A DNA stretch of 64,000 nucleotides, taken from positions 381,854 through 445,853 of the forward strand of contig JBDXCV010000009.1 of the NCBI GenBank assembly GCA_039980135.1, given 5' to 3'. The notes beneath the pieces were generated by a model that was not told where the DNA came from, made no database searches, and worked only from the letters and a program-made list of their open reading frames with translations. The position numbers were made by a program, and so were the translations under genes. The DNA comes from Alphaproteobacteria bacterium. Lineage in GTDB: Bacteria; Pseudomonadota; Alphaproteobacteria; UBA6615. Positions 50,258-58,848 of this stretch are shown piece after piece (positions within the stretch are counted from its first letter, which is position 1; every line of letters begins with the position of its first letter).

Positions 50258-51211
50258 TCACCGCGGCAGGGCGATGAACGTCCCGTTGTTCTGGCGCGTG
50301 ACTTCGCGCATCAGGGTCTCGAACCGGCCTTCGGTCTGCAGCGAGATGAAGCCGATGGCGTGCACCCGCGCCTTGGGCTCGCCGTTGATCCGGTTGGTGT
50401 TGAGCCGCGACAGGGTGGCGATCACCGGATCATAGGATGAACCGGTGTAATCATCCCCGAAGATGTAGATCGAGACCTTCTCGTTGGGTTTGACGTACCG
50501 TTTGAGCGCCACCTCCAGCCCCTCGACCGGGCTCGAATTCGACGCGCTCTTCCAGCTGCGGAACAGGCGGATCGCCCGGTCCCGCGCGCCCTTTGTGTCG
50601 GGAATCCAGCGCCCGCTATAGCCGCCAATCAGATGGGTGCCGTTGTCGTTCAGGACCTGGAAGCCCTTGATTTGCGGGTGGATGTTGATGATGTTCTCGA
50701 CCTCGCGCGTCACCCGTTCCCAGATCGACTGCATGCTCCCCGAGGTATCGACGACGAAGACTACGAACTCGCTGTCCACGGGAATCCCGCCGACCTCGGC
50801 ATCGCGCGGTGCGCTCTCGGGGGCCGAAACCCCGGCGCGGGCCTGGTTGCGCAACGCGCTCTCGACCGTCTTGAGCCCTTCCACGTTGCGCGCCGCTTCC
50901 GCCGCCGCCGCATTTGCGCTTTGCAGGTCGCGTTCGGCCGTGCTGACCGCCGCGCCCTCGGACTCCAGCCGCGCGCGGGTCTCGGCCAGGGTCTCGCTTT
51001 CACGTCCCAATGCCACCTGAAGCTGCTCAATGCGTGACTCGGTACTGATCAGGCGTTGCAAAAGCGTGCTCGTCTCGTCCGTGCCGCCGACCTCGTCCGA
51101 GACGCCAAACGGCGAAATCAGCACCAGCAGCACCACCGCGCCGAAGCCGCACGAGATCACATCGAGAAACGACAGGCTGAAGATTTCGAATTCCGCGCGC
51201 TTTTTTCTCAT
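50258..51211 (-). CDS. Membrane-anchored von Willebrand A protein, MotB-like TM (VWA-1)
   Basis: 317 aa, last gene of the eight-gene operon. One N-terminal TM helix starts with Asp: FLDVISCGFGAVVLLVLI. The pattern F-L-D at the start of the helix matches MotB, whose TM Asp carries protons next to MotA. A coiled coil (about 45-105) follows and then a VWA domain with a full MIDAS (FVVDTSGSMQSIW; later FGDDYTGSSYD). Start ATG 51211 has GAGG 8 bp upstream. 10 bp after the second VWA gene. The periplasmic metal-dependent VWA domain would be a ligand- or substrate-binding part. Confidence 0.85.
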   Translation of the reverse strand: MRKKRAEFEIFSLSFLDVISCGFGAVVLLVLISPFGVSDEVGGTDETSTLLQRLISTESRIEQLQVALGRESETLAETRARLESEGAAVSTAERDLQSANAAAAEAARNVEGLKTVESALRNQARAGVSAPESAPRDAEVGGIPVDSEFVVFVVDTSGSMQSIWERVTREVENIINIHPQIKGFQVLNDNGTHLIGGYSGRWIPDTKGARDRAIRLFRSWKSASNSSPVEGLEVALKRYVKPNEKVSIYIFGDDYTGSSYDPVIATLSRLNTNRINGEPKARVHAIGFISLQTEGRFETLMREVTRQNNGTFIALPR

Positions 51212-51221
51212 GGCCAATTCC

Positions 51222-52277
51222 TCACGGCCAACTCGTGGCGGGGCTGATCAGGATACCGTCCGTCGCCGCCGTCCAGTTCCAGAATTCGTGGGACGCCTGG
51301 GGGTCGCCCTCGATCGGCAGCAGCACGACATTGACCCGCGCGTTGCCGAGGCCCGCATTGCTGATCGTGTGGCGCACCAGCCGGACCCGGCAGGCCCCCG
51401 AGATCGACGTAGCGCCACCCCAAAGCGCGGAGCAGTTCGAGAAAGGGTTGAGGCTGCGATACCCGCCCGTGCCGGCCGTCGGCAGGCCGTCGGTAATCAG
51501 GTAGACATCGGTCGGCCGGAATGCCGCCAGTGACGTCAGCCCCGCCGCCAGGTTGGTCGGCCCGGCCGGCACGACAGCATCGAGATCGCGGAGCACCCGG
51601 CCCAGACCGGCGGCATCGCCGCCATTGACCACGGCCCCGAGCGGCCGCGCCTGGTCGTTGAAGGCAATTACCTGCACGTCCGAGCGTTCCGGGACCCGGG
51701 CTAGGAACCAGTTCACCACGCGGCGTGTACGCTGCCATTTCGGCCCGGCCTGCTTGGCGGCATCGGCCATGTTCTTGCGGCGGATCACGTCAATCAGCAC
51801 CTCGTCGGTCATCGAGGCGCTGGCATCCACCAACACGCCGATCCGCGCACCCTCGACCCGCAGTCCTACGATGTAGTTTTCGCTGCCGGTCGGCCGGGTC
51901 TCGATCACATCCGGTTTCTCCGGGATTTCGATGGCAGTGATCGTCTCTTCGAGCGCCCGCGCAGCACTCTGGCTGGCCGCGATCCGGTCCTGTTCGCGCG
52001 CCAGTTCCGCCTGCAGCCGGGCGAGTTCCGCGGCCCGTGCGGCAACTGCTTCGGCGCCGACCGCCTTGTCGCGCAGAAGTGCCGTGATCCGCGCGGCCAG
52101 GTCGGTCTCCGTCGCCTCAAGGCGCGCCAGATCCTCGCGCAACCGGTCGCTCTCGGCCGACACTTTGTCGGTGTCGAGTTTCACCAGCATCAGAACAAGG
52201 ATGATCGCCCCCAGCCCGCAGGACATGATGTCCAGGAAGGCGAGGTTGAACCCCGGGGGTGAACGGCGCCGTCTCAG
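51222..52277 (-). CDS. Membrane-anchored von Willebrand A protein, MotB-like TM (VWA-2), CTG start proposed
   Basis: 351 aa from the proposed CTG at 52277. N-terminus RRRRSPPGFN, then TM FLDIMSCGLGAIILVLMLVK with the same leading Asp as VWA-1, a coiled coil (about 40-120), and a VWA domain with a variant MIDAS (VLVDASASMTDE: Ser-x-Ser kept). The CTG sits in CTGA, overlapping the proton-channel stop by 4 bp with GGGTGG 6 bp upstream; related proteins begin with a basic cluster right before the TM. ATG 52367 would force a 94-bp overlap. Pairs with VWA-1, possibly as a heterodimer. Confidence 0.8.
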   Translation of the reverse strand: MRRRRSPPGFNLAFLDIMSCGLGAIILVLMLVKLDTDKVSAESDRLREDLARLEATETDLAARITALLRDKAVGAEAVAARAAELARLQAELAREQDRIAASQSAARALEETITAIEIPEKPDVIETRPTGSENYIVGLRVEGARIGVLVDASASMTDEVLIDVIRRKNMADAAKQAGPKWQRTRRVVNWFLARVPERSDVQVIAFNDQARPLGAVVNGGDAAGLGRVLRDLDAVVPAGPTNLAAGLTSLAAFRPTDVYLITDGLPTAGTGGYRSLNPFSNCSALWGGATSISGACRVRLVRHTISNAGLGNARVNVVLLPIEGDPQASHEFWNWTAATDGILISPATSWP

Positions 52278-53080
52278 CTCGGGCCACCCGTATCTTGAAC
52301 CGACATGTTCAGGTCGGCTTGGCTCAGGCCCGCCGCGCTGATCCGGTTGAGCAGGAAGGATTCGCAATATTCCTGGGTGTCCACGAGCATCCCGTCCTGC
52401 AGCCGCTGGAGCTGGTGCAGCAGGAACATCAGGACGATACTGATCAGCAGCGCCACGAAGGTGGAGTTGAACGCCACGCCGAGGCTCTCGGTCATCCCGG
52501 CGATATCACCCGCCAGCGCCTGGTCGGCCTGGGACAGCGCCTCACCGATCCCGCGCACGGTACCGATGAACCCGATCGCCGGGATGGCCCAGATCAGATA
52601 ACGGATCAGGGAGTTCTCGGCCTCCTGTTTCTGCGCCATGGCATCGACGCTCGCCTCTATGGTCTCCGACGTATTGTGTACGTCTCGCGTGATCAGGAAC
52701 CGACGCAGGCTCGCCATCAGCGTGCGCACGAGCGGCGCGCGGCGAATCTTCTCCGGCAGGTCTTCAAGTGTCTTGAGGGTCGCGGCCATGTCGGCGTCCT
52801 CGCTGCCTTCAAGCAAATCCACATTGAACAGGTAGCGCTCGCGCAGGATCGCAATGGATTTCTCGAAGATCAGGTAGAGACCCCAGAACATCAGGATAAT
52901 CGCGATCTCCTGTTCCCAGTCCTTGAGGATCACCACGATGTTGCGCGGGGCGCTCTGGCCGGCCGCGCGCGACGCCTCGATCAGCGCGGTCGATTCCGGC
53001 CAGACATACCCAGCGTAGAACAGATGGACGACGATGATCGAGACGACCAGCGCGAGGATATTCTTGGCGACTTCGGGCAT
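52274..53080 (-). CDS. MotA/TolQ/ExbB-type proton channel protein
   Basis: 268 aa, four predicted TM helices (about 5-27, 60-80, 160-185, 205-230). The C-terminal half has the family core IPAIGFIGTVRGIGEALS and LGVAFNSTFVALLISIVLMFLL. It uses the ion gradient to drive movement of partner single-TM proteins; here the two VWA proteins that follow are the obvious partners. ATG 53080 follows AGGGA. Lies after the 55-aa small gene (34-bp gap). Confidence 0.92.
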   Translation of the reverse strand: MPEVAKNILALVVSIIVVHLFYAGYVWPESTALIEASRAAGQSAPRNIVVILKDWEQEIAIILMFWGLYLIFEKSIAILRERYLFNVDLLEGSEDADMAATLKTLEDLPEKIRRAPLVRTLMASLRRFLITRDVHNTSETIEASVDAMAQKQEAENSLIRYLIWAIPAIGFIGTVRGIGEALSQADQALAGDIAGMTESLGVAFNSTFVALLISIVLMFLLHQLQRLQDGMLVDTQEYCESFLLNRISAAGLSQADLNMSVQDTGGPS

Positions 53081-53114
53081 GCTTTGCGTCCCTGCTTGCG
53101 TCTGACGTGTACTT

Positions 53115-53282
53115 CTAGATGTCGACCGGAAATGACACCGGCGAATTCAGGCTCAATGACGTGGATGACTGGGCGTAGGCAAAGCCGAACAGCCCGATCC
53201 CGGCCGCGACGGCGATCGCCACAACCGTGAGGCGGCGGCGGGCGTTGCCTGCAGATGTATTACTGTGGCGCTGTTTCACCAT
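53115..53282 (-). CDS. 55-aa small secreted or membrane protein within the motor operon
   Basis: Reads MVKQRHSNTSAGNARRRL, a hydrophobic helix VVAIAVAAGIGLFGFAYA, then a polar 18-residue tail ending VSFPVDI. Signal-peptide-like with AYAQ as a likely cleavage site, or a single-TM anchored peptide. ATG 53282 has AGGGAG 8 bp upstream and overlaps the SUMF1-type gene by 23 bp in another frame; its stop is 34 bp before the proton-channel start. Conserved position would confirm it; no family known to me. Confidence 0.7.
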   Translation of the reverse strand: MVKQRHSNTSAGNARRRLTVVAIAVAAGIGLFGFAYAQSSTSLSLNSPVSFPVDI

Positions 53283-55287
53283 GGAGGTATCTCCCTATTC
53301 TGAATCCGACGTCGTCCCGCCCGGTGGACAGGCCGTCCCGGTAGGCCGCGCGTAAGGTAGTGCGCGTACCCGATCGCCAACTCGATCCCTTGACCACATG
53401 GGAGTCGCCGAAGGATGGCCCGAGCGGATCGGTCGCGATGGAGCCTTTCACGGGCGGCTCCAGCGAGTACCAGTCATGGACCCATTCGCTGACATTCCCC
53501 GTCAGGTCGAAAAGCCCGGATTTCTCGGCCGCGAAGCTTGCCACGGGCGCGATCCGCGCATGTCCGTCATTGTAATTGGGAACGAAATTCCGGGCCACAC
53601 CATTGGCGGATTCGTCAGCAATGTTACCCGCGCCCCGCGGGATGGTCGCCGCATCGCCCCAGGTGAATATGCTCCGGGCCGGCCGACCGGCCTTACGCGC
53701 GAGCCATTCCCATTCCGCCTCGCTCAATAGCCGGTATCCGTCTGCCTTCGGATCGATCCCGCGCAACCGCCCCCCGGACATGTCATAGAACGGCTTGAAC
53801 CCCTCCTTTGCGCTCAGCCAGTTGGCGAAGGCCGCCGCGTCCTGCCAGCGCACGTCGCTCACGGGTTCGTTCGGCGCCAGTCCCTGGCTGCCCCTGAACA
53901 TCGCCATCTGGCCATTGGTTGTCTCATGCCTGGCCGCATAGAACGGCCGGGTCAGGCGTACTTTCCGCTCGAATTCGTTGGCCCGCTGGCCGACCTCGTG
54001 GCGCGGCGCGCCCATCGTGAATTCATCTTTGGGCTCGAACAGCACGAGTTCGATCCCCGCGCTGTTGGTGTAGACGCGCGGTGCCTCGGCCAGTTTCGCC
54101 GTTGCCTCGGGGATCAGCGTCTCGCGGATCGCAAGCGGGCGTGCCGCCGATGGCAGCACGGTGCGGGTGATCCCACGGTAACCCGGCCGACGCAGTTCGA
54201 TGGTCGTCGGCACCGCCGGCAGGCGCAGGGACATACGGCCCGCACCGCGCGCCTTTCCGTTCACCAGTATCTGCGCCGGCGGCTTGGTCTCGATCTCCAC
54301 CAGTCCCAACTCGGGTTTGAGTGCAATCTCGAGGGTCCGCGTCTCGCGGGGTTTGAGCCGCACCGTCCGGGTCACGCCGCTGTAACCGTCAAGAATATAG
54401 ACGACGGTGTGGTCCTCCCCAGCGCTGACATCGATACTCTCCGAAGGATTGACCCGTCGGCCATCGACCAGAAGCTCGCCTCCGGCGGGCGTCACGCCAA
54501 ACCGGAGCGTCGCCGCAAGGGGCGGCAGCCGATAATTCCGAATCACTTGCGGCCGGGTGTTGGTGATTCGAATCACGTCCTCGACCGGTTGCCGGTTCGG
54601 TGCCGTGACCGTGACCCGGTACTCTCCGCCCGTCAGCGAACGGTCGATCGGCGCCGCGCCCGCCCCGGCACCATCAATCGTCACTGTCGCGCCGGCAGGA
54701 TCCGAGCGAATGGTTAACCGCCCCGAGACTGGTTCCAACGCTATCTCAATCTCGGTGATCTCGCCCCGCACCAGTTCGATGTCCCGCGTCGCCTTCGCGA
54801 AATACGGGTGATCCACCGCCAGCACATGGGGGCCCGCTTCGCCCTCGATATCGAGCACGGGCCCAACGGTCACCGGCCGCCCGTCGAACGACCAGCGGCT
54901 CTCGTTGCGCGCGAGCGATGTCGTCGCCACGACCCGGCCGGGTAACGGCACCAGGGTCACCGTGATCCGGCGGCCTTTCTCACCCGACTGAATTTCCCGC
55001 ACAGACTCCCGGAACCCCGGCGACCGCACCAGCAATACCGGTGCGCGCGATACCGTGTAGACCGCATCCCCCACCGTCAGCCCGAACCCCTCGGCCAGAT
55101 CGATGGTCCCGGCCGGTTCGGCCTCGGCGGGCAGGATCGTCACCCGTGTCGCGTTGGTGGAAATCAAAACCCCTGCAACCGCGACAACCACCAGGACCAG
55201 CGCCACCAGTCCGAACAGATAAAGCCGGGCCTGCCGTGCGCGCGCCTTGCGCAGTCCCCGTTCGAACGTGTGCTCAGATTCGTTCAT
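53260..55287 (-). CDS. Membrane-anchored PEGA-repeat SUMF1-like protein without cysteines
   Basis: 675 aa. TM helix near 22-44, several PEGA-type beta repeats (about 180-400; RLTIRSDPAGATVTIDGAGAG, LVEIETKPPAQILVNGKARG), and a C-terminal formylglycine-enzyme-like domain (about 420-670; GYRLLSEAEWEWLARKAG, SGLFDLTGNVSEWVHDWY). The whole chain has no cysteine, so FGE chemistry is impossible; the fold is probably a scaffold, as in gliding protein GldK. ATG 55287 overlaps the upstream gene by 14 bp. Co-encoded with a proton channel and VWA proteins. Confidence 0.88.
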   Translation of the reverse strand: MNESEHTFERGLRKARARQARLYLFGLVALVLVVVAVAGVLISTNATRVTILPAEAEPAGTIDLAEGFGLTVGDAVYTVSRAPVLLVRSPGFRESVREIQSGEKGRRITVTLVPLPGRVVATTSLARNESRWSFDGRPVTVGPVLDIEGEAGPHVLAVDHPYFAKATRDIELVRGEITEIEIALEPVSGRLTIRSDPAGATVTIDGAGAGAAPIDRSLTGGEYRVTVTAPNRQPVEDVIRITNTRPQVIRNYRLPPLAATLRFGVTPAGGELLVDGRRVNPSESIDVSAGEDHTVVYILDGYSGVTRTVRLKPRETRTLEIALKPELGLVEIETKPPAQILVNGKARGAGRMSLRLPAVPTTIELRRPGYRGITRTVLPSAARPLAIRETLIPEATAKLAEAPRVYTNSAGIELVLFEPKDEFTMGAPRHEVGQRANEFERKVRLTRPFYAARHETTNGQMAMFRGSQGLAPNEPVSDVRWQDAAAFANWLSAKEGFKPFYDMSGGRLRGIDPKADGYRLLSEAEWEWLARKAGRPARSIFTWGDAATIPRGAGNIADESANGVARNFVPNYNDGHARIAPVASFAAEKSGLFDLTGNVSEWVHDWYSLEPPVKGSIATDPLGPSFGDSHVVKGSSWRSGTRTTLRAAYRDGLSTGRDDVGFRIGRYLHGETAPQ

Positions 55288-56758
55288 CGGGCACGATCTC
55301 CAGGACCAGGTCGGCCTGTCCCGGCGCAATATCGACTCGCACCAACACGGCCTGAAACCCCTCGCGGACTCCCTCAAACGTATAGCGCCCAGGCCGCAGC
55401 TCGATGGTCCGCTCGGTGATCTTTCCCACGATTCCGACCCCGCGCACGGTGATGTTGGTCTTCCCGTCCGACACGATCCGTACCGGCATCTTTACGGCAT
55501 ATGCCGCGACCACCCCGGCGAGCGAGTCGGCCTGCGCGGCAAGCCGGGGGCTGTCATTGCGCAACGGCGCCACGGCGTCGACGATCGATCCGGCGTCGGC
55601 AGCCACCGCCTCCGAGGCCAACCGTTCGGGTGCCGCCAAGTGCCGTGCCGCACGCGCGTGCAGACCGGTGATTGTCTGCGCAAGCGCCAGCCCGTCGCCG
55701 ATGTCGCGGTCGGCCGGTGCGAGCCGGCGAAGCTGGATATAGGTCTGCTCCGCCTTGGTCCAGTCGTCGGCCTGCGCGGCCGCCTGCGCTGTCGCGGTCA
55801 GGCGCGCTATCAGAAGTTCCAGCTCCAGGCCGGCGATCTTCTCGTCCAGCACATCGACCTCGGCACGATCGGGATAGATCGCGCGTGCGGCATCCAGGTT
55901 GCCTTGCGCCGATGTGAGTTTGCGGGCGGCCACATCGTTGAGACCCCTCACGATATGTCCGGCGAACCGCGCTTCGCGCTGCAGACGGCGAATTTCGGTC
56001 AGCCTCGAAGCCAGTGCACCGCGCGCCGGATCGATCGTCAGCGCAGCGTCGAGATGCTCACGCTCGGCATCCAGATTATTCTCGACCCGCGCGACCGCTG
56101 CGGCCTCGATCTTTGCAAGCAGCGACGGCAGCGCGTCGATCCGTTCCTTCAGAGCCAGAGCGGGCGCCGCGCCCGGTCGGATATCCAGCGCCCGGCCGAT
56201 CGCCAGGGCGGCCGCGTCGTAGCTATCGTCCCCAAATGCGGTCTCGGCGGTGCCAAACGCATCATTGAACGCCGTCTCACGCGCCGCCAATGCCGCCTCG
56301 GCGATCTTGCGCGCCGCCGCGAGTTCGGCGACGCCCCCGGCATAGCTGCCCTCGCCGAACAAGGCGATGGCCTTCGCCTTGCCGTCCAGTATCCGGCGCT
56401 GTGCGCCGGCATCCCAGCGGGCGAAATCCTCGTGAATCACCGCCGGCTCCAGTTCGGCCTGGAATGCGGCCAGATTGGCCGTGAATTGGGTGCGGGCGGC
56501 CTCGTTCGCCGCTTCGTCCGGGGCGATTTCCGGTGTTACAACTTCCGGTGCCGCCGGTTCATTCCGGGGTGCCTTCGCGACCGTTTCGGCGTTTGGTTCC
56601 GCCGCGCGCGACACAGGTGATACGTCCGAGGGCCGCAGCAGGACGATTCCGCCATAGACGAGACCGATCACCGCGATGCCCGCAGCGATGCCGACCACCA
56701 GCTGCATCCGGCGGCGCTGAGCCGCCCGGCTTTCCTGTTCGAGTTTCTCCTGGAGCAT
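55274..56758 (-). CDS. Single-TM protein with TPR-like helices and PEGA-like C-terminus
   Basis: 494 aa. Cytoplasmic N-terminal basic stretch, TM near 19-42 (LVVGIAAGIAVIGLVYGGIVLL), a long helical region with TPR-like pairs (FGEGSYAGGVAELAAARKIA; SYDAAALAIGRALDIRP), then a C-terminal beta domain IELRPGRYTFEGVREGFQAVLV typical of PEGA-like modules. Likely a periplasmic scaffold of the same machine. Starts 15 bp after the lipoprotein gene. Confidence 0.8.
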   Translation of the reverse strand: MLQEKLEQESRAAQRRRMQLVVGIAAGIAVIGLVYGGIVLLRPSDVSPVSRAAEPNAETVAKAPRNEPAAPEVVTPEIAPDEAANEAARTQFTANLAAFQAELEPAVIHEDFARWDAGAQRRILDGKAKAIALFGEGSYAGGVAELAAARKIAEAALAARETAFNDAFGTAETAFGDDSYDAAALAIGRALDIRPGAAPALALKERIDALPSLLAKIEAAAVARVENNLDAEREHLDAALTIDPARGALASRLTEIRRLQREARFAGHIVRGLNDVAARKLTSAQGNLDAARAIYPDRAEVDVLDEKIAGLELELLIARLTATAQAAAQADDWTKAEQTYIQLRRLAPADRDIGDGLALAQTITGLHARAARHLAAPERLASEAVAADAGSIVDAVAPLRNDSPRLAAQADSLAGVVAAYAVKMPVRIVSDGKTNITVRGVGIVGKITERTIELRPGRYTFEGVREGFQAVLVRVDIAPGQADLVLEIVPDERI

Positions 56759-56773
56759 GGGCGCCCGTGTCGC

Positions 56774-58039
56774 CTAGAGCTGGACGTTCGGGGTTCGCTC
56801 TTCCTCGAAGACCTTCTGCAGAAAGGCCCGCCACTGAGCGAATTGTTCCTTCGCCGTACCCGTCAACTCCACAGTCTTCTCGTTGAACGCCACAACCCGC
56901 GGGCCGAGATCGATATCGATGGATTCGCCCAGCTCGGCCAGCGCTTCACGATGCACCTTTGCTTCCTTGCTGGTCTGGAAACTGCTCGACAGCAAGGTCG
57001 CGCCCACCGTTCCGGCGACGACACCGCCAGTGACACCTGCCGTCTGGCCCGCCGTCGAGTCCGAATTTGCCCCGGCGATCACCGCCAGCACGCCCAGTCC
57101 GATCGCCAACACACCCAGTGCGGCCTCGCCGATCGCCTCCTCGTTGGCATCACGCCGGGCCTGGATTTCCAGCAGGCTCTGCTCCTGCCAGATCAGGTAG
57201 CTGTCCTGCATCTCGGCGCTGAAGGCGCGGTAATGGTCCTGCAAACCGTCGACGAACAGTTGATCGCGCACCCGCACGGCCCGGGTACGTTCCAGCATCG
57301 GGTCCGCATCGCTTGGGAAACTGCGCAAGGCAACAGTGTTTCGTTTGGTTTCCAGATGCTCGGCAAACGCCGCCTCGGCGAAATTGGAACCGAAGCGCAA
57401 CTCGGTCAGCCGGCCCAGATTGTCCAGCTCCGCGATCGAGTAATCGTCGAGTTCAAGAGCAACCCGGTTGGCGGCTTCCGCAAACACCGGGTCATAGGGG
57501 TCGAGCCCGTCATTGCGCGCGTTCTTGTGGAAACCCGGAGAAACCTCATGGTCAAAGGACCGAACGAACCACGACTTGCCCGACACATCCACAACCTCGA
57601 CCTGGATTTCGACATCCTCGCCGGTGGATTCGATGATCGTTCCCAGCACATACAGATCGCCTGTCGCGCTGCTGTCCGGCGTCACGCGGACCGCGCCGAA
57701 CGCACCCGTCGCCTCGAGCGCCTCTTTCAGTTTCAATGCAAAGCGGTTCGCCTCGGCCCGGCGCAGTTCCGGCCAAACGCCCTCTTCCTCATAGTTGCGT
57801 GCGGCATCGGAAAGGCCCGGATCGAACACGGGCACGACCACATCCAGGCGCGGCTTCGCGGGGTCGACCTCCGCCGGCCCCTTGGGGTCGAACAGCGACG
57901 ACAATTGCGGCCCCACATTCGGGCCGCTGGCACCACTCGCGCCGCCGCCAGAGCCGACATTTCCGTTGGTCACGCAGCCCGTGAGAATGAAGCACGCGCA
58001 AAGGGCGTAGACACCCGTCTTGCGGAAAAGTTTCTGCAT
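56774..58039 (-). CDS. Outer-membrane-type lipoprotein of the motor operon
   Basis: 421 aa. Lipobox LTGC with Cys22; the next residue is Val, which would allow sorting to the outer membrane. The N-terminal globular part (LDVVVPVFDPGLSDAARNYEEEG... LYVLGTIIESTGEDVEIQVEV) resembles LPP20/CsgG-like lipoproteins in style. A hydrophobic Gly/Ala segment near 305-345 may insert into membrane. ATG 58039 has CGGAGAG upstream. Second gene of the operon, 20 bp after the first. Confidence 0.82.
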   Translation of the reverse strand: MQKLFRKTGVYALCACFILTGCVTNGNVGSGGGASGASGPNVGPQLSSLFDPKGPAEVDPAKPRLDVVVPVFDPGLSDAARNYEEEGVWPELRRAEANRFALKLKEALEATGAFGAVRVTPDSSATGDLYVLGTIIESTGEDVEIQVEVVDVSGKSWFVRSFDHEVSPGFHKNARNDGLDPYDPVFAEAANRVALELDDYSIAELDNLGRLTELRFGSNFAEAAFAEHLETKRNTVALRSFPSDADPMLERTRAVRVRDQLFVDGLQDHYRAFSAEMQDSYLIWQEQSLLEIQARRDANEEAIGEAALGVLAIGLGVLAVIAGANSDSTAGQTAGVTGGVVAGTVGATLLSSSFQTSKEAKVHREALAELGESIDIDLGPRVVAFNEKTVELTGTAKEQFAQWRAFLQKVFEEERTPNVQL

Positions 58040-58059
58040 GTCGCTCTCCGTCTGCCCGC

Positions 58060-58848
58060 CTAGTCCTGCACGGGCAGGCCCTTATACCTGCGATACTCGT
58101 CCCACAGCCGCTTTTTCAGCTGCGGATCGGTTTCTTCGATCGCCGCCTGGCGTATCTGCGCCTCCAGGGCGCTGTCATTATCCGCCGGCGGGATGTCCTC
58201 GGGAACCTTACCGCTGCCCGGTGTCCGCGCGGCCTCGAGCACCGGCTCATCACCCGGCGGGCTGTCTTCGGGCGGTTGCGCGCCCTCGACATCGTCGGGC
58301 CGGGTCCATTTGCCATCCGGGTTCGACCGCGTCGTCCCCGAAGACGTCGACGTGGACGCGGTCACGGTCGGTTCATCACCGGCCACATCACTAGCGGCCG
58401 TCGAAGCGCCCGGCGCGGATGGCGCCGCCTCCTGCGCATCCGGGCCGGAGATATCGCTCGCCGCCGTGGACATCTCGCTGCCATCCGATTCGGAACCGGC
58501 CGCCCCGGACCCCGTCGACCCGTTGGCACTCGCGCCGCCAGCGCCACCGCCGCCGCCCGTCCCGGCGCGTTGGCTTTGGCATTCCTCGAAACGGGCCAGC
58601 GAACGCTGAAAGGCCCGGTCCATGCGCGCGATCCGTTCCTCGCGGGTCAGGCCGGGCTCGTCGGCATAGTCGACGGTCACCTCGGTGCAATCATGCGAAA
58701 GTGTGCCCGCGTCGCGCGTGCCCTGTCCGTTTGATGGCCCGTTGGTCGGTGTGCCCGATTGGGCCCAGGCTGGGGCTGCAAGCAGTGCAACCAGACCCGC
58801 AAACGCCGTCAGCATCACCAGATTTCCCGTTCTCGGCCCGATTGCCAC
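58060..58848 (-). CDS. Secreted Ser/Thr/Gly-rich protein heading the motor operon
   Basis: 262 aa from GTG 58848, preceded by GGGAG 6 bp away. Signal peptide ([20 protein letters not shown]; cut before QSG). A short conserved-looking helix with Cys ([30 protein letters not shown]) and a long disordered Gly/Ser/Thr/Pro-rich stretch precede a basic helical C-terminus ([19 protein letters not shown]). Two or three Cys could form a disulfide. No known domain. Probable first gene of the unit; the upstream 247 bp to rpsU hold divergent promoters. Confidence 0.72.

What the first reader, a model, noticed from the sequence alone, without database searches (positions are those of the whole stretch)
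50258..58848. Eight-gene operon joining a proton channel, two VWA proteins, a pseudo-FGE/PEGA protein, a lipoprotein and a 55-aa peptide
All genes are on the minus strand with gaps of 34 bp or less or with overlaps. A MotA/ExbB subunit is paired with two single-TM VWA proteins whose TM helix starts with an Asp at the place where MotB carries protons. Further members have periplasmic PEGA, TPR-like and SUMF1-like parts and an outer-membrane-type lipoprotein. GldK (SUMF1-like) with the GldL/GldM motor is a functional analogy for an ion-driven envelope machine, not clear homology. I know no described system with this exact set.
Basis: partly seen in the sequence, partly recalled or inferred. Interest (0 to 1): 0.88.

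Follow-up and report, generated by a model that had tools for sequence, protein, structure and literature searches.

The report
Eight-gene proton-driven envelope machine

Summary
Of 80 loci fetched by the lipoprotein gene, 66 have all eight genes, in the same order and strand; 13 others are cut by contig ends and one (L046) is an exception. In one sample of 398 phylum genomes the lipoprotein and VWA2 profiles hit the same 16. All eight genes are under purifying selection.

Anatomy: a MotA/TolQ-like channel with invariant pore threonines; two paralogous VWA proteins, each with an invariant Asp in its TM helix; two bitopic proteins (TPR; PEGA plus dead FGE fold); a lipoprotein with a CsgG/PelC/TolB-N-type domain; a predicted secreted protein; and a 44-63 aa peptide ending FP[VLI]DI-stop in 65 of 65 profile-found copies, window included.

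Prior art: TolQ-like genes with heterologous Asp-bearing TM-VWA pairs were reported in 2025 as predicted motors of unknown function (PMC12204202). I found no paper on the eight-part set, its lipoprotein or its peptide. Best reading: a dedicated ion-driven trans-envelope machine, perhaps for export; function is inferred, not shown.

The parts
58060..58848 (-). P262: predicted secreted/periplasmic protein with a hydrophobic N-terminal signal-like segment, low-complexity Gly/Ser middle and a conserved C-terminal stretch. Start codon uncertain.
   Evidence: No Pfam family above cut-off; first gene of the operon in the 66 intact loci; conservation pattern; dN/dS 0.16-0.26.
56774..58039 (-). Lipo421: outer-membrane-type lipoprotein; residues about 54-203 have a CsgG/PelC/TolB-N-type fold, followed by a long helical hairpin with two hydrophobic stretches.
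   Evidence: Lipobox, no Asp after the Cys; model pLDDT 76, pTM 0.72; PelC Z 10.7 over 112 residues at 2.3 A, FlgT Z 10.8, CsgG entries Z about 9-10; hydrophobic hairpin in 80 of 80 sequences measured.
55274..56758 (-). TPR494: single N-terminal TM helix, periplasmic TPR-like helices, C-terminal PEGA-like stretch (the last by eye only).
   Evidence: TM by hydropathy; TPR_2 hits in 3 of 5 members, none in the window copy.
53260..55377 (-). FGE705: single N-terminal TM helix, PEGA repeats and a C-terminal SUMF1/FGE-fold domain without the FGE active-site cysteines. Likely start near 55287.
   Evidence: Pfam; alignment to FGE structures; first active-site Cys position is Ser in 72 of 72 and the second is never Cys.
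53115..53282 (-). 55-aa peptide: basic N-terminus, one hydrophobic segment, small-x-Ala motif, then about 17 residues ending L-N-S-P-x-S-F-P-V-D-I at the stop codon.
   Evidence: C-terminus FP[VLI]DI-stop in 64 of 64 profile-found loci plus the window; position counts; [AVSI]xA 14-20 residues before the end in 58 of 64.
52274..53080 (-). MotA/TolQ/ExbB-family channel subunit, four hydrophobic (TM) segments.
   Evidence: PF01618 53 bits; Thr174 and Thr207 in 69 of 69 sequences with a residue there.
51222..52367 (-). VWA1: basic N-terminus, TM helix beginning A-F-L-D, coiled coil, VWA domain with MIDAS. Start codon uncertain.
   Evidence: Asp46 in 69 of 69; D-x-S-x-S in 68 of 68; Thr271 and Asp293 in 66 of 66.
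50258..51217 (-). VWA2: second, paralogous TM-VWA subunit with TM helix beginning S-F-L-D and a MIDAS.
   Evidence: Asp19 in 69 of 69; D-x-S-x-S in 68 of 68; profile match to VWA1 E 2.1e-19.

Best explanation
The operon encodes one dedicated, proton- (or sodium-) driven machine that spans the cell envelope. Inferred working: a pentamer of the MotA/TolQ-like protein surrounds a dimer of the two VWA proteins (probably one of each), whose TM Asp takes up ions in the threonine-lined pore, so ion flow moves the VWA heads in the periplasm. The two bitopic proteins (TPR494 and the PEGA/pseudo-FGE protein) act as stator or couplers between motor and outer membrane. The lipoprotein forms a ring at the outer membrane, as CsgG- and PelC-type proteins do, with its hydrophobic helical hairpin dipping into the membrane. 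P262 and the processed tail of the small peptide are soluble parts; the fixed free C-terminus of the peptide docks in a partner, possibly the VWA metal site (through its Asp), the substrate groove of the dead FGE domain, or the ring. The likeliest job is energised transport or assembly through the outer-membrane ring. Shown: composition, order, co-occurrence, conserved residues, purifying selection, predicted fold of the lipoprotein N-domain. Inferred: stoichiometry, ring, coupling, peptide docking, transport role.
For: Eight-gene unit in 66 of 66 intact loci (these loci were fetched by the lipoprotein) and all eight genes in 4 of 4 strong VWA1-hit genomes of the class sample; same 16 of 398 genomes for lipoprotein and VWA2; no recurring ninth gene, the two most widespread flanking families reaching 9 loci each; invariant TM Asp pair and pore threonines; both VWA genes in all 66 intact loci, matching the published heterologous-pair motors (PMC12204202); gene distances correlate (r 0.52-0.90 over seven families); lipoprotein N-domain matches PelC, CsgG, FlgT and TolB-N; fixed peptide C-terminus.
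Against: No complex was modelled; the 5:2 or 5:1:1 architecture is by analogy. The fold of the lipoprotein N-domain is common among lipoproteins, so ring formation and a pore are not shown; the DUF330 protein XCC0632, not a known pore, ties with PelC (Z 10.5). The hydrophobic part of the hairpin (about residues 301-360) has pLDDT mostly below 60. No cargo gene is linked, so transport has no named substrate except possibly the peptide. The peptide may stay uncleaved as a TM subunit; no null was computed for its small-x-Ala motif. L046 lacks the peptide and channel in the 404 bases after its FGE gene, and L103's peptide end has diverged.
Confidence: 0.6

Rival explanations
1. An envelope-maintenance machine of the Tol-Pal type: the motor pulls on or recycles the lipoprotein to move it or loosen a complex, with no export channel.
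For: The lipoprotein domain also matches the N-terminal domain of TolB (Z about 8), PqiC (Z 8.0), the DUF330 protein XCC0632 (Z 10.5) and LptE (Z about 7); no linked cargo.
Against: Patchy presence even within a genus (11 of 23 genomes of g295, with several near-complete genomes lacking it) does not fit housekeeping; PelC and CsgG entries score above TolB.
Confidence: 0.2
2. A surface motility or adhesion machine like Myxococcus Agl-Glt or Bacteroidota GldKLMN, with the VWA heads driving or making surface contacts.
For: One A subunit with two different B-type subunits is also the Agl design (AglR with AglQ and AglS; passages of PMC4488436, and PMC9389320); the SUMF1 domain resembles GldK/PorK.
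Against: GldK, GldJ and GltJ models far below cut-off; no recurring flanking gene that looks like an adhesin (by eye); the VWA domains are on TM-anchored proteins of the motor.
Confidence: 0.12
3. An anti-phage defence system analogous to Zorya (a MotA/MotB-type motor with partners).
For: Patchy distribution and varied genomic places; MotA-family channel.
Against: ZorA matches are weak (13.5 bits against a cut-off of 500; PADLOC ZorA2 E 0.0019); no predicted cytoplasmic effector; of 119 neighbouring proteins no defence family matches more than one (16 families, each in one member, at E 1e-10); tree largely follows bacterial class; lipoprotein not found on plasmids, phages or viral contigs.
Confidence: 0.06

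Closest known systems
TolQ-like / TPH-vWA heterologous-pair motors (Mol Biol Evol 2025, PMC12204202; section 8 read)
   Same: TolQ-like gene next to two different TM-VWA genes, no TolR/ExbD, conserved Asp in the helix and a ring of threonines; function unknown.
   Different: The paper's main text has no mention of PEGA, formylglycine, SUMF or Methylophaga, and section 8 names no lipoprotein or peptide with this second family; its figure was not seen, and its reference protein (Idiomarina) was not compared here.
Agl-Glt gliding machine (AglRQS), Myxococcus
   Same: One MotA/TolQ-like subunit with two different B-type subunits plus envelope-spanning partners.
   Different: The passages seen describe AglQ/AglS as MotB/TolR/ExbD homologues, not VWA proteins.
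GldKLMN / PorKLMN (type IX secretion)
   Same: Ion-driven inner-membrane motor working with a SUMF1-fold protein and an outer-membrane-side ring.
   Different: Here the SUMF1 domain is on a TM-anchored protein and fails the GldK cut-off; the channel belongs to PF01618.
CsgG, PelC, FlgT, TolB N-terminal domain
   Same: Predicted fold of the lipoprotein N-domain (Z 8-11).
   Different: No sequence match in the PDB set at E up to 1; followed by a long hydrophobic helical hairpin.
Tol-Pal and Zorya
   Same: PF01618 channel with single-TM partners.
   Different: No TolR, TolA, TolB, Pal or ZorB-E model among the hits of the eight proteins; ZorA match weak.

Membership tests
TPH-vWA / TolQ-like motor pairs (PMC12204202) | TolQ-like gene adjacent to TM-VWA genes | tested here: met
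   All 66 intact loci have MotA-VWA1-VWA2 in a row.
TPH-vWA / TolQ-like motor pairs (PMC12204202) | Heterologous VWA pair and no TolR/ExbD/MotB gene in the cluster | tested here: met
   VWA1 and VWA2 are diverged paralogues, paired in all 66 intact loci; no such model among the hits of the eight proteins.
TPH-vWA / TolQ-like motor pairs (PMC12204202) | Asp in the helix and Thr ring in the channel | tested here: met
   Asp 69 of 69 in each; Thr174 and Thr207 69 of 69.
TPH-vWA / TolQ-like motor pairs (PMC12204202) | Sequence relation to the paper's Idiomarina protein | not tested
   The Idiomarina sequence was not fetched.
TPH-vWA / TolQ-like motor pairs (PMC12204202) | VWA helices inside the pentamer | not testable with these tools
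   Only single chains can be predicted.
MotA/TolQ/ExbB channel family (PF01618) | Match over curated cut-off | tested here: met
   53 bits against 22.9.
5:2 rotary motors | Pentamer around a dimer, ion-driven rotation | not testable with these tools
   Single chains only.
GldKLMN / T9SS | GldK equivalog score | tested here: not met
   57.1 bits against 350.
Zorya | ZorA model score | tested here: not met
   13.5 bits against 500; PADLOC ZorA2 15.3 bits, E 0.0019.
Formylglycine-generating enzyme (catalytic) | Active-site cysteine pair | tested here: not met
   First Cys position Ser in 72 of 72; second never Cys (alignment).
CsgG/PelC/TolB-N superfamily | Fold of the N-domain | tested here: met
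   PelC Z 10.7, 112 residues, 2.3 A; one Foldseek hit under 1e-3, PelC at 9.0e-4.
CsgG/PelC/TolB-N superfamily | Oligomeric ring in the outer membrane | not testable with these tools
   No oligomer prediction.

The most novel reading that the evidence does not exclude
A proton-driven motor with a heterodimeric VWA axle drives an outer-membrane ring whose pore is made of helical hairpins, and processes, loads or exports a tiny peptide of about 17 residues. The peptide's free C-terminal strand (alternating hydrophobic, ending F-P-V-D-I) is the universal ligand or plug of the machine. This would be a new class of energised envelope machine with a built-in peptide.
Probability: 0.2. Interest if true: 0.9.

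Novelty: new variant of a known kind. Interest (0 to 1): 0.7.

Why it matters
Ion-driven motors of this kind power swimming, iron uptake, outer-membrane constriction, gliding, secretion and phage defence. A complete, portable eight-part system with a strict parts list turns the recent prediction of VWA-type motors into something testable: it names the partners and the probable outer-membrane end. The near-invariant free C-terminus of the small peptide is a sharp handle for finding what the machine does. Cultured strains among the records (Methylophaga thiooxydans and others, Sneathiella litorea, Mariprofundus sp. EBB-1, Magnetovibrio blakemorei, Aestuariispira insulae) make tests practical.

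Tried and rejected
Plasmid, phage and viral-contig searches with the lipoprotein found nothing, so a mobile-element origin has no support. A search of the flanks for a constant ninth gene or cargo found none, and the PADLOC scan of 119 neighbours showed no recurring defence family. The Pfam scan of the same 119 proteins lists only the first 25 of 161 families, so it excludes nothing. The first lipoprotein model from 5 sequences was poor (pLDDT 56) and its fold search pointed weakly at LptE, PqiC and TolB; the 72-sequence model replaced it. Sequence searches of the PDB found no relative for the lipoprotein at E up to 1 or the channel at E up to 0.1; VWA1 hit one uncharacterised 'Conserved protein' (8s05, E 3.8e-5, residues 190-285) plus weak coiled-coil matches; VWA2 gave only RipA coiled-coil matches at E 0.054; TPR494 gave weak TPR-type and other helical matches. 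A catalytic FGE was rejected for lack of the cysteines. A likeness of the peptide's L-N-S-P to the sulfatase C-x-P motif that FGE reads is recalled and was not tested; it stays speculation. The own genome holds one site for the peptide's end followed by a stop-like codon, the peptide gene itself.

Results against the reading: the profile missed the peptide in 6 intact loci; by eye 5 of these have it ending FPVDI and 1 (L103) ends differently. L046 has no peptide or channel in the 404 bases after FGE. Of the 64 profile-found peptides 6 lack the [AVSI]xA motif in the stated range. The system is rare: lipoprotein in 16 of 398 phylum genomes, 11 of 24 in the window's family, 13 of 74 in the family of G328. 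Literature: eight accepted searches listed no description of the full set in the held open-access library; one search listed 20 of 63 papers, and subscription journals and preprints are not covered.

Dropped before counts: the tree and distance correlations used 65 rows (window and 64 loci) that had all seven long proteins, with L026, L095, L072, L033 and L081 left out (near-copies or cut). The neighbour scan used 119 of 699 flanking ORFs (nearest two per side, at least 120 aa, within 5 kb, in 34 chosen loci). The genome-contig scan kept 80 of 102 loci; the other 22 were not seen. The 80 loci were chosen by the lipoprotein, so only searches test co-occurrence without that choice.
Full report
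What is there. The window (G000:C9:381854-445853 of a 3.76-Mb genome) carries eight minus-strand genes between 50258 and 58848, with gaps of at most 34 bp or overlaps. In transcription order they are P262, a lipoprotein (421 aa), a TPR protein (494 aa), a PEGA/FGE-fold protein (705 aa as called, probably about 675), a 55-aa peptide, a MotA/TolQ-like channel (268 aa), VWA1 (381 aa as called) and VWA2 (319 aa). Pfam supports the channel, the PEGA and FGE-fold domains and, weakly, the VWA domains. The lipoprotein and P262 match no family above cut-off; among 72 lipoprotein family members Pfam gives five weak families, each in one member.

Is it a unit? In a class sample of 289 genomes, VWA1 has strong matches in the window's genome and four others, and weak ones in four more. 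tblastn finds all eight genes in the same order in the four strong ones. A genome-collection scan with the lipoprotein found 102 related loci, of which 80 were kept. Profile searches of these loci show all eight genes in 66, all in the same order and strand; in six of the 66 the peptide was found by eye and not by profile. Thirteen of the remaining 14 end at contig edges; L046 has 404 bases after FGE without the peptide or channel. By record title the 80 loci are from Rhodospirillales and other Alphaproteobacteria, Sneathiella, Magnetovibrio, Methylophaga, Cycloclasticus, Mariprofundus and records labelled Desulfobacteraceae, Desulfocapsaceae, Pseudodesulfovibrio, Nitrosomonadaceae, Nitrospirales, Binatota and Caldithrix; many are metagenome bins, whose labels may be wrong. 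In one sample of 398 phylum genomes the lipoprotein profile and the VWA2 profile each hit 16 genomes (window's own included), the same 16. Flanking genes differ: the two most widespread flanking families reach 9 loci each, an ABC ATPase and a sensor-like membrane protein by eye, with many flanks short. All eight genes show dN/dS of 0.05-0.26 against three relatives, and the distances of the seven long ones correlate (r 0.52-0.90). So the unit is these eight genes.

Distribution. It is patchy: 11 of 24 genomes in the window's family, 13 of 74 in the family of G328 and 11 of 23 in its genus g295 (match coordinates equal to those of Mariprofundus loci L042 and L073 suggest that g295 is Mariprofundus). 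The tree of channel, lipoprotein and VWA2 mostly groups by class (9 changes for 8 groups, least possible 7). An old cassette with many losses and some transfer fits. Plasmid, phage and viral-contig collections gave no copy of the lipoprotein.

The motor. The channel has four hydrophobic segments, and its pore threonines (174, 207) are invariant in 69 of 69 sequences with letters there. Each VWA protein has one TM helix beginning with [A/S]-F-L-D; the Asp is present in 69 of 69 in both families, and the MIDAS D-x-S-x-S in 68 of 68. That this Asp sits where MotB, ExbD and TolR have theirs is from recalled sequences and the paper below. VWA1 and VWA2 are paralogues across helix, coiled coil and first MIDAS motif, and both are present in all 66 intact loci. 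That is the design reported in PMC12204202, whose section 8 I read: TolQ-like genes with heterologous pairs of TM-VWA genes, no TolR/ExbD, the Asp surrounded by the threonine ring in AF3 models, function unknown. One A subunit with two B-type subunits is also known from AglR/AglQ/AglS (passages). The stator survey PMC12505986 has no 'VWA' or 'von Willebrand' in its main text (term count and passages). The motor part is therefore a member of an already predicted kind.

The outer-membrane end. The lipoprotein has a lipobox in nearly all members and, in the 76 copies where it was found, never Asp after the Cys, which by the recalled Lol rule means outer membrane. The 72-sequence model (pLDDT 76, pTM 0.72) has a well-predicted domain at about residues 54-203 that matches FlgT (Z 10.8), the PelC dodecamer subunit (Z 10.7, 112 residues, 2.3 A), the DUF330 protein XCC0632 (10.5), CsgG entries (about 9-10) and TolB's N-domain (about 8). 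Foldseek alone gives one hit below 1e-3, PelC. That PelC and CsgG form rings in the outer membrane is from PDB titles and general knowledge. After this domain comes a long helical hairpin whose two hydrophobic stretches are kept in 80 of 80 sequences measured; model confidence there is low. A ring with a helical membrane plug or pore is plausible but not shown.

The couplers. TPR494 and FGE705 each have one N-terminal hydrophobic helix, so their domains should be periplasmic. The FGE fold lacks the enzyme's cysteines: Ser in 72 of 72 at the first position, never Cys at the second. It scores 57 bits against the GldK cut-off of 350, so it is a pseudo-enzyme of the SUMF1 superfamily and not a GldK.

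The peptide. This is the most unusual part. Its first half varies, but the C-terminus is FP[VLI]DI followed by the stop in 64 of 64 profile-found loci and the window; Leu at -11, Phe at -5, Pro at -4, Asp at -2 and Ile at -1 are invariant in the 64. Positions -1, -3, -5, -11 and -13 are hydrophobic throughout and -7 is Val or Ala in 57 of 64, while the even ones between are mostly polar or Pro, as in a beta strand that adds to a sheet. A small-x-Ala motif lies 14-20 residues before the end in 58 of 64, as for signal peptidase I, so a free peptide of about 17 residues is likely; no null was computed and cleavage is unproven. The own genome has no second site with that exact tail.

What it does. 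The parts list fits an ion-driven machine that reaches from the inner membrane to an outer-membrane ring. I favour energised transport or assembly, because several of the nearest folds of the outer-membrane part belong to export rings and because a tiny exported peptide is built in. Envelope maintenance, surface motility and phage defence are the rivals; the defence reading is weakened by flanks without recurring defence families (119 neighbours) and by weak Zorya matches.

Novelty. Eight literature searches listed no paper on the full set; PMC12204202 covers the motor core only, as far as its text goes (figures not held). I therefore call it a new variant of a known kind.

Noticed in passing
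L020:4754-10552, L021:995-4521, L023:2276-9833: Other VWA sets of the class (MotA + two VWA in L020 and L023; VWA only in the short contig L021) sit beside Ser/Thr kinases fused to beta-helix repeats, PP2C phosphatases or a trypsin/FHA protein; the lipoprotein, FGE and peptide profiles do not hit there. They may be a second, signalling-linked class of VWA motors.
   Followed up: partly
L024 and L025 (two contigs of one bin, SI072_bin63); G307: Two diverged copies of the operon appear in one genome bin (L024, L025), and G307 has two lipoprotein matches.
   Followed up: no
L040:12680-14693: In Magnetovibrio blakemorei MV-1 the FGE gene is found in two reading frames, suggesting a frameshift or an assembly error.
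   Followed up: no
L046:6098-6502: A Mariprofundus bin keeps the first four genes but shows no peptide or channel in the 404 bases after FGE.
   Followed up: partly
window 52274-53080; G000: The genome holds five MotA_ExbB-family genes; the operon's channel is the second weakest match of the five to the Pfam model.
   Followed up: no
L016:510-1772: An ORF that looks like a tyrosine integrase lies about 6.7 kb downstream of the operon in G059 (by eye).
   Followed up: no
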